Below, one piece after another: positions 24,328 through 31,852 of a stretch of DNA of 57,289 bases (the first letter of the stretch is position 1; each line of letters opens with the position of its first letter). The position numbers were made by a program, and so were the translations under genes. The stretch lies in the NCBI RefSeq assembly GCF_005222955.1, contig NZ_LWUA01000006.1, positions 1 through 57,289 of the forward strand, read 5' to 3'. Source of the stretch: Blastococcus sp. CCUG 61487 (GTDB lineage: Bacteria; Actinomycetota; Actinomycetes; Mycobacteriales; Geodermatophilaceae). Under the pieces are notes generated by a model. It made no database searches. It was not told the DNA's origin and saw nothing but the letters and a program-made list of their open reading frames with translations.

Positions 24328-24534
24328 ATGTACGTGTGCCACTGCAACGTGGTGACCGACCAGGACGTCATCGAGTCGATCGCCAACGGCGCCCGGTGCA
24401 TCGCCGACGTCGCCCGGGACACCGGGGCCGGCCGCACGTGCGGCGGCTGCGTCGACACCATGCGCGAGCTCGTGTGCCAGCATTGCCCGGTCATGACCGA
24501 GCGACAGCTGGGAGTTGCAGGTGCAGCCCGTTAG
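24328..24534 (+). CDS. bfd: Bacterioferritin-associated ferredoxin
   Basis: A 68-residue [2Fe-2S] protein with the BFD cysteine pattern: YVCHCNVV at residues 4 and 6, then TCGGCVDT at about 38 and 41. Bfd donates electrons to the haem of bacterioferritin to release stored iron as Fe2+. It overlaps bfr by 14 bases and shares its iron box, so store and release functions are co-expressed. Confidence 0.92.
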   Translation: MYVCHCNVVTDQDVIESIANGARCIADVARDTGAGRTCGGCVDTMRELVCQHCPVMTERQLGVAGAAR

Positions 24535-25003
24535 TCCCCGGGTGGTCGAACTGCTCAACGATGCGTTGACCTTCGAGCTCACCGTCACCAACACGTACTT
24601 CCTCAACGCCCGCATGCTGGACGCCTGGGGACTCCCGAAGCTGGGCAAGGTCTTCTACGACCTGTCCATCGACGAGATGCGCGACGCCGACGACCTGATC
24701 CAGCGCGTGCTGCTGTTCGACGGCCACCCCAACCTGCAGCGCCTGGGCGCGATCCGGGTCGGCGAGACCGCCGAGGAGATGCTCGTCCTCGCGCTCGACA
24801 GCGAGAAGTCCGCGGTGGCGCAGTTCAACGCCTCGGCCAAGGAGTGCCACGACCTCGGTGACCACGGCACCGCCGCCGTCTTCGAGGAGATGGTGCGGGA
24901 CGAGGAGAAGCACGCCGACTGGTTCGAGGCGCAGATCGCCGCGATCGAGCGGGTCGGGGCGCAGCAGTACCTCGCCGCGCAGATCAACACCGAGACGCCC
25001 TGA
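24521..25003 (+). CDS. bfr: Bacterioferritin (with an altered ferroxidase ligand)
   Basis: A 160-residue four-helix ferritin. The haem-binding methionine is Met53 in SIDEMRDAD. Ferroxidase ligands E19, E52 and the Glu/His of RDEEKHADW are kept, and the Glu of DSEKS aligns with E94 of E. coli Bfr. However, the histidine that follows the haem Met two residues later in E. coli (H54) is aspartate here (D55). That may change iron oxidation. Start is the GTG at 24521 with GGAG six bases upstream; a TTG at 24515 is the alternative. Terminated by the hairpin at 25024. Confidence 0.9.
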   Translation: MQPVSPRVVELLNDALTFELTVTNTYFLNARMLDAWGLPKLGKVFYDLSIDEMRDADDLIQRVLLFDGHPNLQRLGAIRVGETAEEMLVLALDSEKSAVAQFNASAKECHDLGDHGTAAVFEEMVRDEEKHADWFEAQIAAIERVGAQQYLAAQINTETP

Positions 25004-25023
25004 GCGGTTCGCCGACGACAGAC

Positions 25024-25060
25024 CGAGGGCCCCTCACCCGATCCGGGTGAGGGGCCCTCG
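25024..25060. terminator. Perfect 17-bp hairpin between bfr and the siderophore-binding gene
   Basis: cgagggcccctcacccg pairs exactly with cgggtgaggggccctcg around the loop atc. It lies 20 bases after the bfr stop and 4 bases before the convergent lipoprotein stop, so it can end both transcripts. Confidence 0.85.
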
Positions 25061-25064
25061 CCGG

Positions 25065-26021
25065 TCAATCGAGCAGGAGGTCGCGGAGCTGCTCCAGTTG
25101 GAGGGTCGCCGCGCGCAGCCCGATGCCGGTGAAGAACACGTCGTCCTCCACCGCGTAGGCCCGCCCTTCGGCCACCGCGGCGAGCCGCTCCCAGAGCGGC
25201 CCGGCCACCACGGCGGCCGCGCCGGAGTCGGACTCCGATCCGTAGGAGGAGTAGAGGACGACGTCGGCGTCGGCCTGCGTGACCTCCTCGGCGGACAGCT
25301 CCGCGAAGGTCGGCGTCCGGCTGGTCGGCAGCTGCAACTGGTCCAGCCCGATGTCGGCGAGCACGGTGCCGATGAAGGAGTCCGCGGTGTAGACGCGGAT
25401 GGTCCCCTCCACGAAGCGCACGGCGCTCACCGTCACGCCGTCGGCCGCGCCGAGCTCCTCGCCGAGGGCGGCGGCGTCCGCGCGGTAGGCGTCGAGCGCC
25501 TCCTGCGCCTCGTCCTCGAGCCCGAGCGCCTCGGCGTCGAGCAGGAAGTTCTCCGCCCAGACCGCGCCGACGCGCTCGGTGAACACGGTGGGCGCGATCT
25601 GCGAGAGCTGTTCGTAGATGTCCTCGTGCCGCACCTTGTTGGACAGGATCAGGTCCGGCTCCAGCGCGGCGATCGCCTCGAGGTTGGGCTCGGCGATCGT
25701 GCCGACGACCTCGACGCCCTCGGCGTCCTCGGCCAGGTAGCTCAGGAAGTCCTCGGAGACCGCCGTCGTGACCGCCCCCACGGGCGTCACCCCGAGCGAC
25801 AGGACGGTGTCGAGCTCCCCGGTGTCCAGGACGACGACCCGCTCGGGTCGCTCCGGGATCTCGGTGCTGCCCATCGCGTGCTCCACGATCCGCGGGAAGC
25901 CCTCGTCGGCAGCGGCAGCGCCGCCCGCGTCCGGGGACTCCTCACCACCGTCACCGCACGCGCTGAGCGCCAGGACCGCTGCTGCGGTCATCGCGACGGT
26001 GCGCAGGATCCGCCTGGCCAT
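25065..26021 (-). CDS. Iron-siderophore ABC transporter substrate-binding lipoprotein
   Basis: A 318-residue lipoprotein. Signal peptide and lipobox are LALSAC at about residue 22. The body is a type III (FepB/FhuD-like) periplasmic binding fold: RVVVLDTGELDTVLSLGVTPVG, EAIAALEPDLILSN, IAPTVF, ALDAYRADAAALGEELG and a C-terminal long helix. It should capture Fe-siderophore outside the membrane. No permease or ATPase is in the window, so the transporter core is encoded elsewhere. Start at the ATG at 26021 with GAGGAG upstream. Expression is likely iron-repressed through the box at 26099. Confidence 0.9.
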   Translation of the reverse strand: MARRILRTVAMTAAAVLALSACGDGGEESPDAGGAAAADEGFPRIVEHAMGSTEIPERPERVVVLDTGELDTVLSLGVTPVGAVTTAVSEDFLSYLAEDAEGVEVVGTIAEPNLEAIAALEPDLILSNKVRHEDIYEQLSQIAPTVFTERVGAVWAENFLLDAEALGLEDEAQEALDAYRADAAALGEELGAADGVTVSAVRFVEGTIRVYTADSFIGTVLADIGLDQLQLPTSRTPTFAELSAEEVTQADADVVLYSSYGSESDSGAAAVVAGPLWERLAAVAEGRAYAVEDDVFFTGIGLRAATLQLEQLRDLLLD

Positions 26022-26098
26022 CCGCTCTCCTCGTCTCGGGCGTCCCTCGGGACGCACCTCTGGTCCTCGCCGCCGGCCGTGTGCAACACTGCCGAGAG

Positions 26099-26117
26099 CC
26101 AGGTGAGGCTAGCCTAA
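26099..26117. promoter_or_regulatory. IdeR/DtxR-type iron box in the divergent siderophore promoter
   Basis: ccaggtgaggctagcctaa matches the iron-box consensus core AGGTxAGGCTAxCCTAA. It lies between the divergent lipoprotein gene (start 26021) and the siderophore-interacting protein gene (start 26158), so one site can repress both. Confidence 0.75.
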
Positions 26118-26157
26118 GTCGCGAGACCGTCTGCACCTGCCGAACCTGGGAGCCGCC

Positions 26158-27090
26158 ATGACCGTCGAGACCGTGCAGGTCCCCGCCTACCGCACCTTCC
26201 CGGTCCAGGTGTCCCGGCTGCAGCGGCTGAGCCCGAGCTTCCTGCGGGTCACCTTCACCGGCCCGGAGCTGGACGATTTCGCGTCCAACGGCTGGGACCA
26301 GCGGATCAAGGTCATGCTGCCGCTGCCCGGACGCGGCCTCGACGACTGCCCGTCCGGCCCCGACTGGTACGGCGACTGGCGGGCACTCCCGGCCGAGCGG
26401 CAGATGCCGATCCGCACGTACACGGTCCGGGCCGCCCGCCCCGAGCAGCACGAGGTCGACGTCGACTTCGTCCTGCACGGCGCCACCGGCCCGGCCTCGG
26501 CGTGGGCGGAGTCGGCGGCGGTCGGCGACGAGGTCGTCCTCGTCGGGCCGAACGCTCGCTTCGCCGGCCCGACCGGCGGCTTCGAGTGGCATCCCCCGGT
26601 GGACGCCTCCTGCCTGCTGATCGCCGGCGACGAGACGGCGGTGCCGGCCATCTGCATGATCGTCGAGTCCCTGCCCGCCGGGCAGCGGGCCCGTGTCCTG
26701 CTCGAGGTGCCCGAGGCCGGGGACGTGCTGGACGTCGCCGCGCCCGCGGGCGTCGAGGTCACCTGGCTGCCCCGCAGCTCCGGCGACGGCGTCCCGGCCG
26801 CCCGCGGAGCCCGGCTCGCCGCCGCCGTCATCGAGGCCGCGGCCGAGCTCGCCGACGACCTGGCGCCGAGCCCGGCGGTCGAGCTCGAGGACGTCGACAT
26901 CGACAGCGCCATCCTCTGGGAGGTCCCCACCGAGGCCGCCGCCCCGGCCCGGTCCTCGGGCGTCTACGCCTGGCTGGCCGGCGAGGCCGCGGTGGTCAAG
27001 GGGCTGCGCCGCCACCTGGTGCAGGAGCTCGGCGTCGACCGGCGTTCGGTGGCCTTCATGGGCTACTGGCGCGAGGGCCGCGCGAGCTGA
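26158..27090 (+). CDS. Siderophore-interacting protein (FAD-dependent ferric reductase, ViuB/YqjH type)
   Basis: A 310-residue cytosolic flavoprotein. The FAD-binding beta-barrel carries MPIRTYTVR (flavin) and DVDFVLHG...GPASAWA; the C-terminal SIP domain carries LIAGDETAVPAI, SGVYAWLAGEAAVVK and VAFMGYWREGRA. It should reduce and release iron from imported ferric siderophores. It is divergent from the binding lipoprotein with a shared iron box. Confidence 0.93.
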   Translation: MTVETVQVPAYRTFPVQVSRLQRLSPSFLRVTFTGPELDDFASNGWDQRIKVMLPLPGRGLDDCPSGPDWYGDWRALPAERQMPIRTYTVRAARPEQHEVDVDFVLHGATGPASAWAESAAVGDEVVLVGPNARFAGPTGGFEWHPPVDASCLLIAGDETAVPAICMIVESLPAGQRARVLLEVPEAGDVLDVAAPAGVEVTWLPRSSGDGVPAARGARLAAAVIEAAAELADDLAPSPAVELEDVDIDSAILWEVPTEAAAPARSSGVYAWLAGEAAVVKGLRRHLVQELGVDRRSVAFMGYWREGRAS

Positions 27091-27134: not shown

Positions 27135-27353
27135 ATGCCTACTCCCGACGTCGTCGCCATGGACGGCCTCAGCATGATCGGGACCGTCGGCTTCTTCGTG
27201 CCGGCGGCACTGCTCGTCGCGATCGTCGTGGGAGCCGTCGTCCGCGACCGCCGGCTGAGCGCCCGCGAGGCCGCCGAGGAGGCGACCCGCGAGGCCATGG
27301 CCCGCGAGGCACTGCCCGAGCGGGACAGCCCTACTCGTCCCCGAGCTGACTGA
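27135..27353 (+). CDS. Small single-helix membrane protein, function unknown
   Basis: A 72-residue protein with a short N-terminus, one strong transmembrane helix at about residues 14-36 (GTVGFFVPAALLVAIVVGAVV), then a charged Arg/Glu/Ala helix (RDRRLSAREAAEEATREAM). No family recognised. Its 3' end overlaps the 3' end of the convergent MerR gene by 23 bases. GGAGG sits too close to the ATG at 27135 to be ideal; the GTG at 27120 or ATG at 27159 are alternatives. Confidence 0.55.
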   Translation: MPTPDVVAMDGLSMIGTVGFFVPAALLVAIVVGAVVRDRRLSAREAAEEATREAMAREALPERDSPTRPRAD

Positions 27354-28098
27354 GCGCGGCCTCGACCGCCGCGGCGACCTCTGCCGCCATCTCGGTCCGG
27401 AACGCCGCCAGCACCGCCTGCGCGGCCACCGGCTGGAGCCTGGTGACCGTCGCGAGGATCTCCGCGCGCCGCTCCGCAGGAGCGCCGGCGTCCACGAACT
27501 CCCGCCAGCGAGTGTCGACGAACATCTGCACGTAGGTGCGGGCGAGCGCCCGCACGTGCTCGTTGACCTGCGTCTGCGCGGCGATCAGCGCCGACGGCGG
27601 CACGCCCAGCGCGACCACCTGCAGCCCGGCCATCAGCAGCGCCGGGTCGAGCACGCGCAACCGGCCGTCGTCCTGCCGCTCCACCAGGCCCAGCTCCACG
27701 AGTTGGTCGACCACCTCGGGCTGCTCGGGCACGCCGGCGCGGGCGGCGAGCTCCTCGCCGGTGGTGAGCTCCGGCTCCGGCGGGAGCCAGGGGGCCAGCA
27801 GGGCGCGGTGCAGCGCCAGCGTCGCCGAGCTCGCCGTGGGCGGGGCGCTGGACAGGGTCCGCTCGATCATCGCCAGCGAGTAGCCCTCGGCGAGCATCTC
27901 GCGGACCAGCAGCAGCCGGGCGACGTGCTCGCGCCCGTAGTACCCGGTGCGGCCCACCATCCGTGGCGGCGGCAGCAGACCCCGGGCGGCGTAGGCGCGG
28001 ACGTTGCGCACGGTCAGGCCAACGCGAGCGGCCAGCTCGTCGACGGTCAGGTCGCTCTCGTCCGACTCGCCGGCCGGATCGACCTGTGCTGTGCTCAC
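27331..28098 (-). CDS. MerR-family transcriptional regulator
   Basis: A 255-residue regulator. The N-terminal MerR winged helix spans residues about 17-85: LTVDELAARVGLTVRNVRAYAARGLLPPP, read in pieces, then TGYYGREHVARL and GYSLAMIERTL. The remaining 170 residues are helical with no metal-binding cysteines, so a small-molecule or protein signal is more likely than a metal. It is divergent from the PmoC-motif membrane operon (28207-31852) and is the obvious candidate to control it. Start is the GTG at 28098, five bases after AAGGAGG; the GTG at 28104 would overlap that site. Confidence 0.88.
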   Translation of the reverse strand: MSTAQVDPAGESDESDLTVDELAARVGLTVRNVRAYAARGLLPPPRMVGRTGYYGREHVARLLLVREMLAEGYSLAMIERTLSSAPPTASSATLALHRALLAPWLPPEPELTTGEELAARAGVPEQPEVVDQLVELGLVERQDDGRLRVLDPALLMAGLQVVALGVPPSALIAAQTQVNEHVRALARTYVQMFVDTRWREFVDAGAPAERRAEILATVTRLQPVAAQAVLAAFRTEMAAEVAAAVEAALSQLGDE

Positions 28099-28206
28099 CG
28101 CCACCTCCTTCCCGTCGTGACCCCACGGTAAGCCGCTCGTTCTATCTATCAGTTGTCGATGTCACCGTGATGGGTGTTCCATAGCCCCATGCCTCGAGGG
28201 GATGCC

Positions 28207-30102
28207 ATGCCGCTAGACGTGCCGCTGGACGTGCCGCCCGATGTGCTGCCCCTGGCTGCCGAAACTCGTCCGGCGGGCGGCGCCGCCATCGGCGAGGTGC
28301 TGCTCGCTACCGCCATCGGCGTCGGTCTCACCGTGCTCCTGCTCGCCCTGGTCTACCTGCACCGCACCCGGCGCACCACCGTCCTGACCCGGATCGGCGA
28401 CCGGCTCGGGTCGGCGACGGGCGTGCCCGCCTGGGTGGCGGTGCCCACCGTCCTGACGACGATCTCGCTGCTCACCGCGCTGCTCGGGATGCTCTGGGAC
28501 ATCAGCCTGCACATCGGCGTCGGCCGCGACGAGGGCCCGCTGGCCAACCCGGCGCACTTCCTCATCCTGTTCGGGCTGTTCGGCGTCTTCGCCGGCGGCG
28601 TGCTGGCCTGCGCCATGCCGCTGGACGAGAAGCCCGGCCCGGCCGCCGTCCACTTCCTGCGCGGCTGGGACGTCCCGGTGGGCGGCATCATCCTCACCGC
28701 GGCCGGCTTCTACGCCCTGCTCGGCTTCCCGCTCGACGACGTCTGGCACCGCATGTTCGGCCAGGACGTCACCCTGTGGGGCCCGACCCACCTGATGCTC
28801 ATCGGCGGCGCCGGCCTGTCCATCATCGGCCTGCTGCTCCTGGAGCAGGAGGGCCACGGCGGCCTGTCCACCGACGACGGCGACCGCAAGGTCGGCCAGA
28901 CCGCCCGCTTCATCCGGCAGGCCTCCGCCATGGGCGGGCTGCTGCTGGGCATGTCGGTGTTCCAGGGCGAGTACGACTTCGACGTCCCGCAGTTCCGGCT
29001 GGTGCTCGAGCCGCTCATGATCGCCGGCGCCGCCGGCATCGCGCTGGTGGCCGCCCGGCTGTTCATGGGCCGCGGCGGCGCGCTGGCCGCGGCCGCGTTC
29101 TTCCTGGTGATCCGCGGGGTGATCTCGCTGATCGTCGGGCCCGGGTTCGACGAGATCATGCCGAGCTTCCCGCTGTACCTCGGCTCGGCGATCGTCGTGG
29201 AGCTGCTCGCCCTGTCTGTTCCGCTCGTCCGGAAGCCGCTGGCCTTCGGCGCCGTCGCCGGTGTGCTCGTCGGCACGGTCGGGCACGCCACCGAGTGGGG
29301 CTGGACGCAGTTCACCCAGACGCTCTCCTGGAACAGCGACATCCTCGTAGAGGGCACGCTCATGGCCGTCGCCGGCGGCGTCACCGGCGGCCTGCTCGGC
29401 GCGCTGCTCGCCACGGGCCTGCGCCGTCGGCTGCCCCGTCCGGCCGTCGCGCGCAGCGTCCTCGTCGGCTCGCTCGTCGTGCTGGCCGCCGCCGTCGCCA
29501 ACGGGCTGATCGCGACGGTTCCCGACGACGTGCAGGCGACCTTCGACATCGAGGACGTCGAGACCGACCCGCGCACCGCGAACATCACCGTGCAACTCGA
29601 CCCCGCCGACGCCGTGGACGACCCCGCGTGGGTGCAGATCACCGCCTGGCAGGGGGACGGCCTGGTCGTCACCGAGCTCGAGCGGACCGGGGAGGGCGAG
29701 TACCGGACGACCGAGCCGGTTCCGCTGCACGGCACCTGGAAGACCCTGCTGCGCCTCCACGACGGCCGCGTCCTCACCGCCGTCCCCATCTACCTGCCCG
29801 CCGACGAGGCGATCGGCGAGGAGGAGCTCCCGGCCGAGGACGGCATGACCCGCGCGGCGATCCCCGAGGTCGAGATCCTGCAGCGCGAGCTGAAGGACGC
29901 CACCGGCAGCCTGTGGACGATCTCCAACCTGGTCGTGCTCGCCTGCACCCTGGCGCTCATCGCGACCATCTCGTGGGGCGTCGGCCGGTACTCCCGGCGG
30001 GCCGGCGTGCGGGACCCGTACGCCGACACGTCCGCCGAGGGCCTCCCGGAGGGCGCGCCCGCACCTGTCGACGACCCGGCGCACGGGGCGGTGCGCCGAT
30101 GA
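28207..30102 (+). CDS. Polytopic membrane protein with two PmoC/AmoC-like metal motifs and a YtkA/FixH-like domain
   Basis: A 631-residue protein with about 12 membrane helices up to residue 430, an extracytoplasmic beta domain (about 435-570, with WKTLLRLHDGRVLTAVPIY resembling YtkA/FixH domains), and a last helix near 585-605. Two similar motifs sit at helix ends: D98-x3-H102-x4-RD-x8-H117 and D177-x3-H181-x4-QD-x7-H195. The second, DDVWHRMFGQDVTLWGPTHL, closely resembles the D-x3-H-x12-H copper/zinc site I recall from PmoC and AmoC. A further His is in GHATEWGW (H360). I infer a membrane metalloenzyme or metal-handling protein; I do not know its reaction. Start ATG 28207 with GAGGGG. It overlaps the cupredoxin gene by ATGA. 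Confidence 0.6.
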   Translation: MPLDVPLDVPPDVLPLAAETRPAGGAAIGEVLLATAIGVGLTVLLLALVYLHRTRRTTVLTRIGDRLGSATGVPAWVAVPTVLTTISLLTALLGMLWDISLHIGVGRDEGPLANPAHFLILFGLFGVFAGGVLACAMPLDEKPGPAAVHFLRGWDVPVGGIILTAAGFYALLGFPLDDVWHRMFGQDVTLWGPTHLMLIGGAGLSIIGLLLLEQEGHGGLSTDDGDRKVGQTARFIRQASAMGGLLLGMSVFQGEYDFDVPQFRLVLEPLMIAGAAGIALVAARLFMGRGGALAAAAFFLVIRGVISLIVGPGFDEIMPSFPLYLGSAIVVELLALSVPLVRKPLAFGAVAGVLVGTVGHATEWGWTQFTQTLSWNSDILVEGTLMAVAGGVTGGLLGALLATGLRRRLPRPAVARSVLVGSLVVLAAAVANGLIATVPDDVQATFDIEDVETDPRTANITVQLDPADAVDDPAWVQITAWQGDGLVVTELERTGEGEYRTTEPVPLHGTWKTLLRLHDGRVLTAVPIYLPADEAIGEEELPAEDGMTRAAIPEVEILQRELKDATGSLWTISNLVVLACTLALIATISWGVGRYSRRAGVRDPYADTSAEGLPEGAPAPVDDPAHGAVRR

Positions 30103-30551
30103 CCGCCCGGCGCACCCTCGCCGCCTTGTTGCTGCCCCTCCCCCTCGTCCTGGCCGGCTGCGCCGGCACGGAGGCCTCCGAGTCGGGGGCGACCAGCACC
30201 CCGGAGCGCTCGTCGGACAGCACCTCACCCGACAGCACCTCGACCGACCGCGGCTCCGCGGAGACCAGCGCTCCCGCGCCGAGCTCCGCGGCGACGGCGT
30301 TCGAGGTGCAGGTGACGGGTGGGCAGCCGACCGGGGACACCGGCCGCGTGCTCGTCCCGCTGGGGAACCGGGTGACGGTCACCATCACCAGCGACGCCCC
30401 CGACGAGGCGCACCTGCACGGGTACGACGTCCTGGTGGACCTCGAGCCGGGCACCCCCGCGGAGCTGGCCTTCGACGCGACGGTGCCCGGGGTGTTCGAG
30501 CTGGAGCTGCACGACGCGGGGACGGTGCTGCAGACGCTGCAGGTCGGATGA
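30099..30551 (+). CDS. Cupredoxin-like lipoprotein
   Basis: A 150-residue lipoprotein: signal peptide with lipobox VLAGC (about residue 20), a 45-residue Ser/Thr/Pro/Glu spacer, then a compact cupredoxin-type beta sandwich (about residues 65-150). Key residues are in VLVPLGNRVTVTITSDAPDE, AHLHGYD and PGVFELELHDAG. The His-x-His of AHLHGY and the C-terminal His of ELHDAG are the likely metal ligands; the usual Cys ligand of type-1 copper is missing. It could deliver copper or electrons to the membrane protein upstream. ATGA overlaps on both sides make translation coupled. Confidence 0.75.
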   Translation: MTARRTLAALLLPLPLVLAGCAGTEASESGATSTPERSSDSTSPDSTSTDRGSAETSAPAPSSAATAFEVQVTGGQPTGDTGRVLVPLGNRVTVTITSDAPDEAHLHGYDVLVDLEPGTPAELAFDATVPGVFELELHDAGTVLQTLQVG

Positions 30552-31852
30552 CGGTCCTGGCGCACGGGGTCGGGTCGCGCACGGACCTCCCGATCCCGCT
30601 CGGTCTGGCCCTGTACGGAGCCGGCGCGGCGATCCTGATCAGCTTCGCGGTGCTGCTGCTGTTCTGGCGGACGCCGAAGCTGGGCGGCCCGGAGTCCGGC
30701 CGGCCGCTGCCGCCCGCGCTGCAACGCGTCCTGGACGGCGCTCCCCTGCGTCGCGGGCTGCAGGCGGTCGCGCTCGGCTGCCTGCTCCTGGTGGTCGCCG
30801 CCGCGCTGGCCGGCCCGCCGGAGACGGCGCGCAACCTCGGCCCCTGGGCGCTGTACGTGACGTTCTGGGTCGGCCTGGTCCCGGTCAGCCTGCTGTTCGG
30901 ACCGGTCTGGCGGGTGGCCAACCCCCTGCGGCTGGTGCACCGCCTGCTCCGCGGCGTGGTGCCGGCGGCCCCGGGTGCTCGGCAGCTGCCGGCCCTGGGC
31001 CTGTGGCCGGCGGCGGTGTCGCTGGTGGTCTTCCTGTGGTTCGAGCTGGTCCACCCCGATCGGGCGGAGCCGGGGACCGTGGCCGGCTTCCTGATCGGCT
31101 ACGCGGTCGTGCAGACGGCGCTGGCGCTCTGGTTCGGCGAGGGCTGGTTCGCCCGCGGTGATGGCTTCGAGGTCTACTCCGTCCTCATCGCGCGACTGTC
31201 GCCCTGGGACCGCCGCAGCGACGGGCGGCTGGTGGTGCGCAACCCGCTGGTCAACGCACTGAACACCCCGGAGGTCCCGGGGCTGGCCGCCGTCGTCGTC
31301 GTGCTGCTCGGCTCCACGGGGTTCGACGGGATCACCCGCACCGTGTGGTGGCAGACCGGCCCCGGCGCCGCGAACGACGCGTTCTCCGGCACCGTCGGGC
31401 TGCTGGCGTCGATCGCGCTGGTCGCCGGGCTGTACCTCCTCGGCACCCGGCTCTCCGGCCGGCTGGCCGGCCAGCCACCGGGGGTGCAGCCGGCGCGGTA
31501 CGCCGCGACGGTCATCCCGATCGCCCTGGGTTACACGGTCGCCCACTACTTCAGCCTGCTGATGCTGGACGGGCAGACGACCTGGATCCTGCTCAGCAAC
31601 CCGTTCGGGATGTCGGGCGTGGACCTGTTCGGCACCTACGACAACGTCGTCGACCTCACGGCGGTCAGCCCCGACACCATCGCCTACGTGCAGGTGGGTG
31701 CGGTGATCGCCGGGCACGTGGCCGGGGTGACGCTGGCCCACGAACGGGCGCTGCTCTCGGCCCGCCACGCTCGCGCGTCGGACCAGCTGCCGCTGGTCGT
31801 GGTCATGGTGCTGTTCACCGTGGGCGGCCTGGGTCTGCTCTTCGGTTTCTGA
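30548..31852 (+). CDS. Polytopic membrane protein of the actinobacterial 'fenitrothion hydrolase' family
   Basis: A 434-residue protein with about 10-11 membrane helices. Its opening AHGVGSRTDLPIPLGLALYG and internal features (WRVANPLRLVHRLL, FSGTVGLLASIAL, VAHYFSLLMLDGQTTW) resemble proteins that databases label fenitrothion hydrolase after one organophosphate-degrading Burkholderia enzyme. That name may not reflect the role here. Homologues usually have a signal peptide ending just before the HG; here only four residues precede AHG, so the start may be shortened or the export signal lost. Third gene of the coupled operon. Confidence 0.6.
   Translation: MTVLAHGVGSRTDLPIPLGLALYGAGAAILISFAVLLLFWRTPKLGGPESGRPLPPALQRVLDGAPLRRGLQAVALGCLLLVVAAALAGPPETARNLGPWALYVTFWVGLVPVSLLFGPVWRVANPLRLVHRLLRGVVPAAPGARQLPALGLWPAAVSLVVFLWFELVHPDRAEPGTVAGFLIGYAVVQTALALWFGEGWFARGDGFEVYSVLIARLSPWDRRSDGRLVVRNPLVNALNTPEVPGLAAVVVVLLGSTGFDGITRTVWWQTGPGAANDAFSGTVGLLASIALVAGLYLLGTRLSGRLAGQPPGVQPARYAATVIPIALGYTVAHYFSLLMLDGQTTWILLSNPFGMSGVDLFGTYDNVVDLTAVSPDTIAYVQVGAVIAGHVAGVTLAHERALLSARHARASDQLPLVVVMVLFTVGGLGLLFGF

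What the first reader, a model, noticed from the sequence alone, without database searches (positions are those of the whole stretch)
28207..31852. Membrane operon with PmoC/AmoC-like metal motifs, a cupredoxin lipoprotein and a third membrane protein
Seen: the 631-residue first protein has two copies of a motif at helix ends, D98-x3-H102-x4-RD-x8-H117 and D177-x3-H181-x4-QD-x7-H195. Known: PmoC/AmoC of copper membrane monooxygenases bind metal through D-x3-H-x12-H in a segment of the form D-x-x-W-H-x4-RD-x4-P-S-H. The second copy here (DDVWH, then QD, then PTH) fits that form with one extra residue. The next gene encodes a cupredoxin-like lipoprotein, and copper monooxygenases carry cupredoxin domains in PmoB. 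All three genes overlap by ATGA. Inference: an undescribed membrane metalloenzyme or copper-handling complex with an internally duplicated PmoC-like core. The substrate is unknown and no methane or ammonia role is implied.
Basis: partly seen in the sequence, partly recalled or inferred. Interest (0 to 1): 0.85.

Follow-up and report, generated by a model that had tools for sequence, protein, structure and literature searches.

The report
Fused methane-monooxygenase-like copper membrane protein
A soil and rock bacterium, like many of its relatives, carries an unnamed membrane protein that looks like two subunits of the copper enzyme that burns methane joined into one chain, next to a small copper-type protein, which suggests an unrecognised family of copper membrane enzymes in bacteria not known to eat methane or ammonia.

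Summary
Protein A (631 aa, window 28207-30102, Blastococcus) has two Asp-x3-His...His triads, invariant in every aligned homologue that covers them, in a family with no Pfam, NCBIfam or PDB relative by sequence. The PmoC lead holds, with a correction: the second triad is not a copy of PmoC's CuC motif. PmoC itself has two triads, CuC (D156/H160/H173, R165 nearby) and CuD (N227/H231/H245), and A's residues pair with both in order in one profile alignment (Asp replacing Asn). Folded alone, A27-224 finds PmoC/AmoC chains first in the PDB; A222-408 finds PmoA/AmoA chains first by the VIA aligner (not by Foldseek E-value). A therefore looks like a fused PmoC-PmoA core plus an extracytoplasmic beta domain. 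Each single score is weak; the joint pattern is the argument. B is a Cys-less cupredoxin lipoprotein, C an unclassified membrane protein. B-C pairs away from A lie near copper or oxidase genes in several loci, so copper is likely. A divergent MerR gene, kept in about half the loci, suggests inducible expression. Best guess: a copper membrane oxygenase or oxidase of unknown substrate. Architecture is fairly well supported; catalysis is inference.

The parts
28207..30102 (+). Protein A, 631 aa: PmoC-like + PmoA-like membrane core in one chain, with extracytoplasmic beta domain
28285..28878 (+). A residues 27-224: PmoC-like domain (model mac2e75bb5859, pLDDT 88.2)
   Evidence: Foldseek ranks 1-3 and VIA ranks 1-5 are PmoC/AmoC chains
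28498..28557 (+). CuC-like triad D98-x3-H102-x4-R107-D108-x8-H117
   Evidence: pairs with PmoC D156/H160/R165/H173 (residues named in passages of PMC12576850)
28735..28791 (+). CuD-like triad D177-x3-H181-x13-H195
   Evidence: pairs with PmoC N227/H231/H245, Asp replacing Asn
28870..29430 (+). A residues 222-408: PmoA-like domain
29524..29856 (+). A residues 440-550: beta-sandwich domain, assigned outside (weakly FixH-like)
   Evidence: (FixH in 3 of 30 members, best 0.057)
30099..30551 (+). Protein B: cupredoxin-fold lipoprotein without a blue-copper Cys; H105, H107, E136, H138 conserved
30548..31852 (+). Protein C: polytopic membrane protein without Pfam, NCBIfam or PDB relative; N-terminal HG...DLP motif; UniRef calls a few relatives 'Fenitrothion hydrolase'
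27331..28104 (-). MerR-family regulator, divergent from A
   Evidence: PF13411 2.2e-19; homologue within 1.5 kb of A in 46 of 94 loci with at least 0.9 kb upstream
28142..28184 (.). Conserved intergenic element between MerR and A, probable operator/promoter
   Evidence: near-identical in most of the Blastococcus loci aligned, recognisable in other Geodermatophilaceae

Best explanation
A is a remote relative of the copper membrane monooxygenase core in which the PmoC-like and PmoA-like parts are one polypeptide, in the order xmoC-xmoA, followed by an extracytoplasmic beta domain. Its two triads (D98/H102/H117 near R107, and D177/H181/H195) would form two neighbouring copper positions equivalent to CuC and CuD at the outer face (in the pMMO structures CuC and CuD are not filled at the same time). 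Lipoprotein B, a Cys-less cupredoxin, would bring copper or electrons to A, and membrane protein C would help load copper. In the genomes that keep the divergent MerR gene, expression is probably induced through it. The most likely role is copper-dependent oxidation (oxygenase or oxidase) of an unknown small or membrane-soluble substrate. Shown by computation: conservation, operon, loop-charge trend, fold ranking, gene linkage. Inferred: copper as the metal, the assembled site, catalysis, and the roles of B, C and MerR.
Confidence: 0.55

Rival explanations
1. A is a PmoC/PmoA-like copper protein that is not an oxygenase: it takes up, stores or hands over copper, for example to a terminal oxidase, with B and C as chaperones.
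For: C loci away from A have CopC, SCO1, PCuAC, DUF1775 or COX1/2/3 genes nearby in 6 of the 20 fetched, among neighbours that I picked for scanning. On the M. vanbaalenii plasmid A sits beside CopC, with cytochrome oxidase and assembly genes within about 12 kb. No catabolic genes were found conserved beside A.
Against: A occurs without C in 22 of the 36 sampled genomes that have A. Conservation of two triads plus R107 and further acidic residues (E255, E332) suggests a reaction centre more than a store. The MerR partner scores far below the CueR cut-off (21.2 of 147.4 bits).
Confidence: 0.3
2. The resemblance to PmoC/PmoA is convergence of helix bundles and of Asp/His motifs; A is a membrane enzyme or transporter using another metal (iron or zinc).
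For: Foldseek E-values above 0.05 throughout; N-terminal Z tied with a designed bundle; masking the motifs removes the profile signal; no profile signal for PmoA.
Against: Two neighbouring segments each rank a partner subunit of the same enzyme first in VIA, in operon order. Eight residues including both triads pair collinearly. The partner gene is of cupredoxin type.
Confidence: 0.12
3. The operon is a pesticide-hydrolase system, as the UniRef name of some C relatives suggests.
For: The name 'Fenitrothion hydrolase' stands on 4 of the 120 listed C homologues.
Against: An automatic-looking name on a few entries; C is in 55 of 296 sampled actinobacterial genomes; the searches that used this name showed no functional study in their short listings. 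The source of the name was not traced.
Confidence: 0.03

Closest known systems
PmoC/AmoC (PF04896), subunit of copper membrane monooxygenases
   Same: D-x3-H-x4-RD...H (CuC) followed by x-x3-H-x13-H (CuD) at helix ends; chains of this subunit rank first for A27-224
   Different: Not recognised by PF04896; H-x14-H instead of H-x12-H in the first triad; Asp instead of Asn in the second; in one chain with a PmoA-like part
PmoA/AmoA (PF02461)
   Different: No detectable sequence-profile similarity; no separate gene
PmoB/AmoB
   Same: Extracytoplasmic beta domain(s) in the system
   Different: A has one weakly FixH-like domain between two helices; the cupredoxin is a separate lipoprotein (B); no His-brace CuB site identified
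Cytochrome oxidase subunit II / Cupredoxin_1 proteins
   Same: B's fold by profile
   Different: No Cys ligand; conserved HxH and ExH instead
Short 394-aa paralogue in Geodermatophilaceae (L009-L012, P0241-P0360)
   Same: Both triads and the RD motif invariant in the 120 listed sequences; hhalign E 1.7e-10 to A27-225, and an aligned stretch reaching into the PmoA-like part
   Different: Too short for the beta domain; no B or C hit in L009-L012

Membership tests
Copper membrane monooxygenase (CuMMO) | PF04896/PF02461/PF04744 profile match | tested here: not met
   no such family listed for any of 30 members at E up to 10 (filters drop most weak matches); PF04896 no match in G000 at E 0.001
Copper membrane monooxygenase (CuMMO) | PmoC CuC ligands Asp, His, His with neighbouring Arg | tested here: met
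   D98/H102/R107/H117 invariant and aligned with the positions of D156/H160/R165/H173
Copper membrane monooxygenase (CuMMO) | PmoC CuD ligands Asn227, His231, His245 | tested here: inconclusive
   both His present and aligned, Asn replaced by invariant Asp177
Copper membrane monooxygenase (CuMMO) | PmoC fold | tested here: inconclusive
Copper membrane monooxygenase (CuMMO) | PmoA fold | tested here: met
Copper membrane monooxygenase (CuMMO) | PmoB with two cupredoxin domains and CuB histidines | tested here: inconclusive
   no profile signal of PmoB to A; B carries HxH but was not compared by fold
Copper membrane monooxygenase (CuMMO) | Separate genes for the C, A and B subunits | tested here: not met
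   the PmoC-like and PmoA-like parts of A are one reading frame
Copper membrane monooxygenase (CuMMO) | Copper content and oxygenase activity | not testable with these tools
   needs purified protein
Blue-copper cupredoxin (protein B) | Type-1 ligands His, Cys, His, Met (recalled) | tested here: not met
   only Cys is the lipobox; H105, H107, E136, H138 conserved
Cupredoxin fold (protein B) | Cupredoxin_1 / COX2 profile similarity | tested here: met
   12 of 17 family members at E up to 0.1; COX II chains 1.6e-06 with the family profile; the window copy alone does not match
CueR-type copper MerR (window 27331-28104) | NCBIfam CueR cut-off | tested here: not met
   21.2 bits against 147.4
Fenitrothion hydrolase (protein C) | Similarity to the characterised enzyme, and activity | not tested
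   only the UniRef label was seen

The most novel reading that the evidence does not exclude
A founds a new, widespread branch of the copper membrane monooxygenase superfamily in which xmoC and xmoA are one gene. It occurs in actinobacteria not known as methanotrophs or nitrifiers, has both CuC- and CuD-like sites with Asp in place of Asn, and oxidises an unknown substrate. It would be a natural single-chain variant for testing which site is catalytic in pMMO and AMO.
Probability: 0.42. Interest if true: 0.94.

Novelty: new variant of a known kind. Interest (0 to 1): 0.84.

Why it matters
Which copper site of particulate methane monooxygenase is the active one has been argued over, with CuB, CuC and CuD all proposed (passages of PMC12576850), and the enzyme is hard to make outside its hosts (recalled). 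A large unnamed family that keeps exactly the CuC and CuD positions, has an Asp where pMMO has Asn, and has no recognisable PmoB would be a natural experiment on which residues are essential. If catalytic, it would also give many actinobacteria an unrecognised copper oxidation capacity.

Tried and rejected
Profile search of A against Pfam, NCBIfam and PDB sequences: nothing but weak FixH for the beta domain and chance hits. hhalign of A against PmoA and PmoB: no signal above decoys, so the PmoA claim rests on the model alone; a tempting match of E255/D257 to PmoA's first acidic motif could not be confirmed and is not claimed. Decoys of PmoA and PmoB against A27-225 reached 21.7, still below 29.3. 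Masking the eight motif columns removed the PmoC profile signal. Foldseek of the N-terminal model against viral structures: no match of interest. hhalign of C against PmoA/B/C and A: nothing. A search for conserved neighbours beyond B, C and MerR found none in the loci compared. Literature: nine searches (open-access PMC only, no preprints; the listings were cut to 8-10 papers) showed nothing recognisable as this family in the listings; only passages of PMC12576850 and PMC9038741 were seen, the rest as listings. Co-occurrence: A in 36 and C in 55 of the same 296 genomes, both in 14, against 6.7 expected if independent (my count from the lists; not corrected for relatedness, weak hits included).

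Full report
WHAT IS THERE. Three overlapping genes on the + strand: A 28207-30102 (631 aa), B 30099-30551 (150 aa lipoprotein), C 30548-31852 (434 aa), with ATGA junctions. A MerR-family gene (27331-28104, PF13411 at 2.2e-19) is divergent from A. The organism is a Blastococcus by its best named relatives (89-90% identity). Of 23 same-genus genomes, the own one counted, 20 have a full-length A; one more matches only weakly, through the short paralogue, and two not at all.

THE FAMILY. A belongs to a large unnamed family: 6851 of 8000 scored candidates pass E 0.001 (only the best 120 are listed), and 36 of 296 sampled Actinomycetota genomes match at E 0.001. No Pfam, NCBIfam or PDB relative is found by sequence. 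A scan of one genome per species over all phyla gave 572 relatives, of which the best 80 were kept; 79 of the 80 bear actinobacterial titles and one, titled Bacillus, is 89% identical to A and looks mislabelled. More distant members of that scan were not seen. Both triads are invariant in every aligned sequence that covers them.

BETA DOMAIN AND TOPOLOGY. Residues 440-550 form a beta sandwich between two helices, weakly like FixH (3 of 30 members, best 0.057). Loop charges over 118 rows fit an N-out topology: mean K+R is 1.9-4.9 in the loops assigned inside and 0.1-1.3 in the short ones assigned outside. The helix list was mine: it counts 325-341 as crossing and 59-71 as not. It places both triad loops and the beta domain on the outer side, where lipoprotein B would be.

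PARTNERS. B has a cupredoxin fold by profile, with conserved H105, H107, E136 and H138 and no Cys beyond the lipobox. C is polytopic and unclassified, with invariant H6, G7 and D13-L14-P15; UniRef labels 4 of the 120 listed relatives Fenitrothion hydrolase. Of 80 named loci, 67 hold both B and C along with A, 48 with B on A's strand and 19 on the other; 3 lack them, 10 are too short to judge (positions). Of 20 wider loci fetched around A, mostly from distant families, 1 has both and 19 neither. C occurs in 55 of 296 genomes, 14 of them with A. Of 20 loci around C genes away from A (some in genomes that have A elsewhere), 13 have B. Neighbours that I picked by eye in 8 of these 20 loci were scanned: 6 loci gave DUF1775, SCO1, CopC (two loci, one also COX3), PCuAC or COX1/COX2, one gave an E1-E2 ATPase and one nothing; this is not a full count. 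On a Mycolicibacterium vanbaalenii plasmid A lies next to CopC, near CbtA, cytochrome oxidase and assembly genes, with B and C about 8 kb away.

REGULATION. A homologue of the MerR gene lies within 1.5 kb of A in 46 of 94 loci with enough upstream sequence (39 flagged divergent by the script; the coordinates suggest two more). 38 of the 46 are named loci, mostly Geodermatophilaceae, and 8 come from distant families; nearly all Actinomadura, Aeromicrobium, Rhodococcus and Saccharopolyspora loci lack it. The intergenic stretch 28142-28184 is nearly identical in most of the Blastococcus loci aligned and recognisable in other Geodermatophilaceae, as expected for a regulated divergent promoter. The regulator is not CueR by NCBIfam cut-off.

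INTERPRETATION. I commit to a PmoC-PmoA-like copper protein in one chain (about 0.8 for the architecture, 0.75 for copper) that is more likely an oxidising enzyme than a copper carrier (about 0.45 against 0.30). It is not filed as a CuMMO: the profile match and the separate-gene layout were tested and not met. It would work like one, if the model is right.

Noticed in passing
G000 contig 237, 26720-28021 (-) (locus L182): The same genome carries a second B-C pair (C 74% identical) without A nearby, next to a DUF1775 gene.
   Followed up: partly
L009 1902-3083 (-), also L010-L012: A 394-aa paralogue in other Geodermatophilaceae keeps both triads and the RD motif but is too short for the beta domain; no Pfam match.
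   Followed up: partly
L050 (SPQJ01000016.1): A record titled Bacillus sp. AZ43 (unverified organism) carries a Blastococcus-like copy 89% identical to A; probably mislabelled.
   Followed up: no
window 24515-27090: Ferritin-like, periplasmic-binding (Peripla_BP_2) and siderophore-interacting protein genes lie upstream of the MerR gene: an iron-handling group.
   Followed up: no
L157 9724-10920 (-): A 399-aa reading frame between A and its MerR gene in a distant actinobacterium has no Pfam match at E 0.01.
   Followed up: no
L149 (NZ_CP126903.1 220052-245812): A plasmid copper/oxidase island: COX I and III, assembly protein, CopC, CbtA, DUF305, BlaI/M56, with A, B and C within it.
   Followed up: partly
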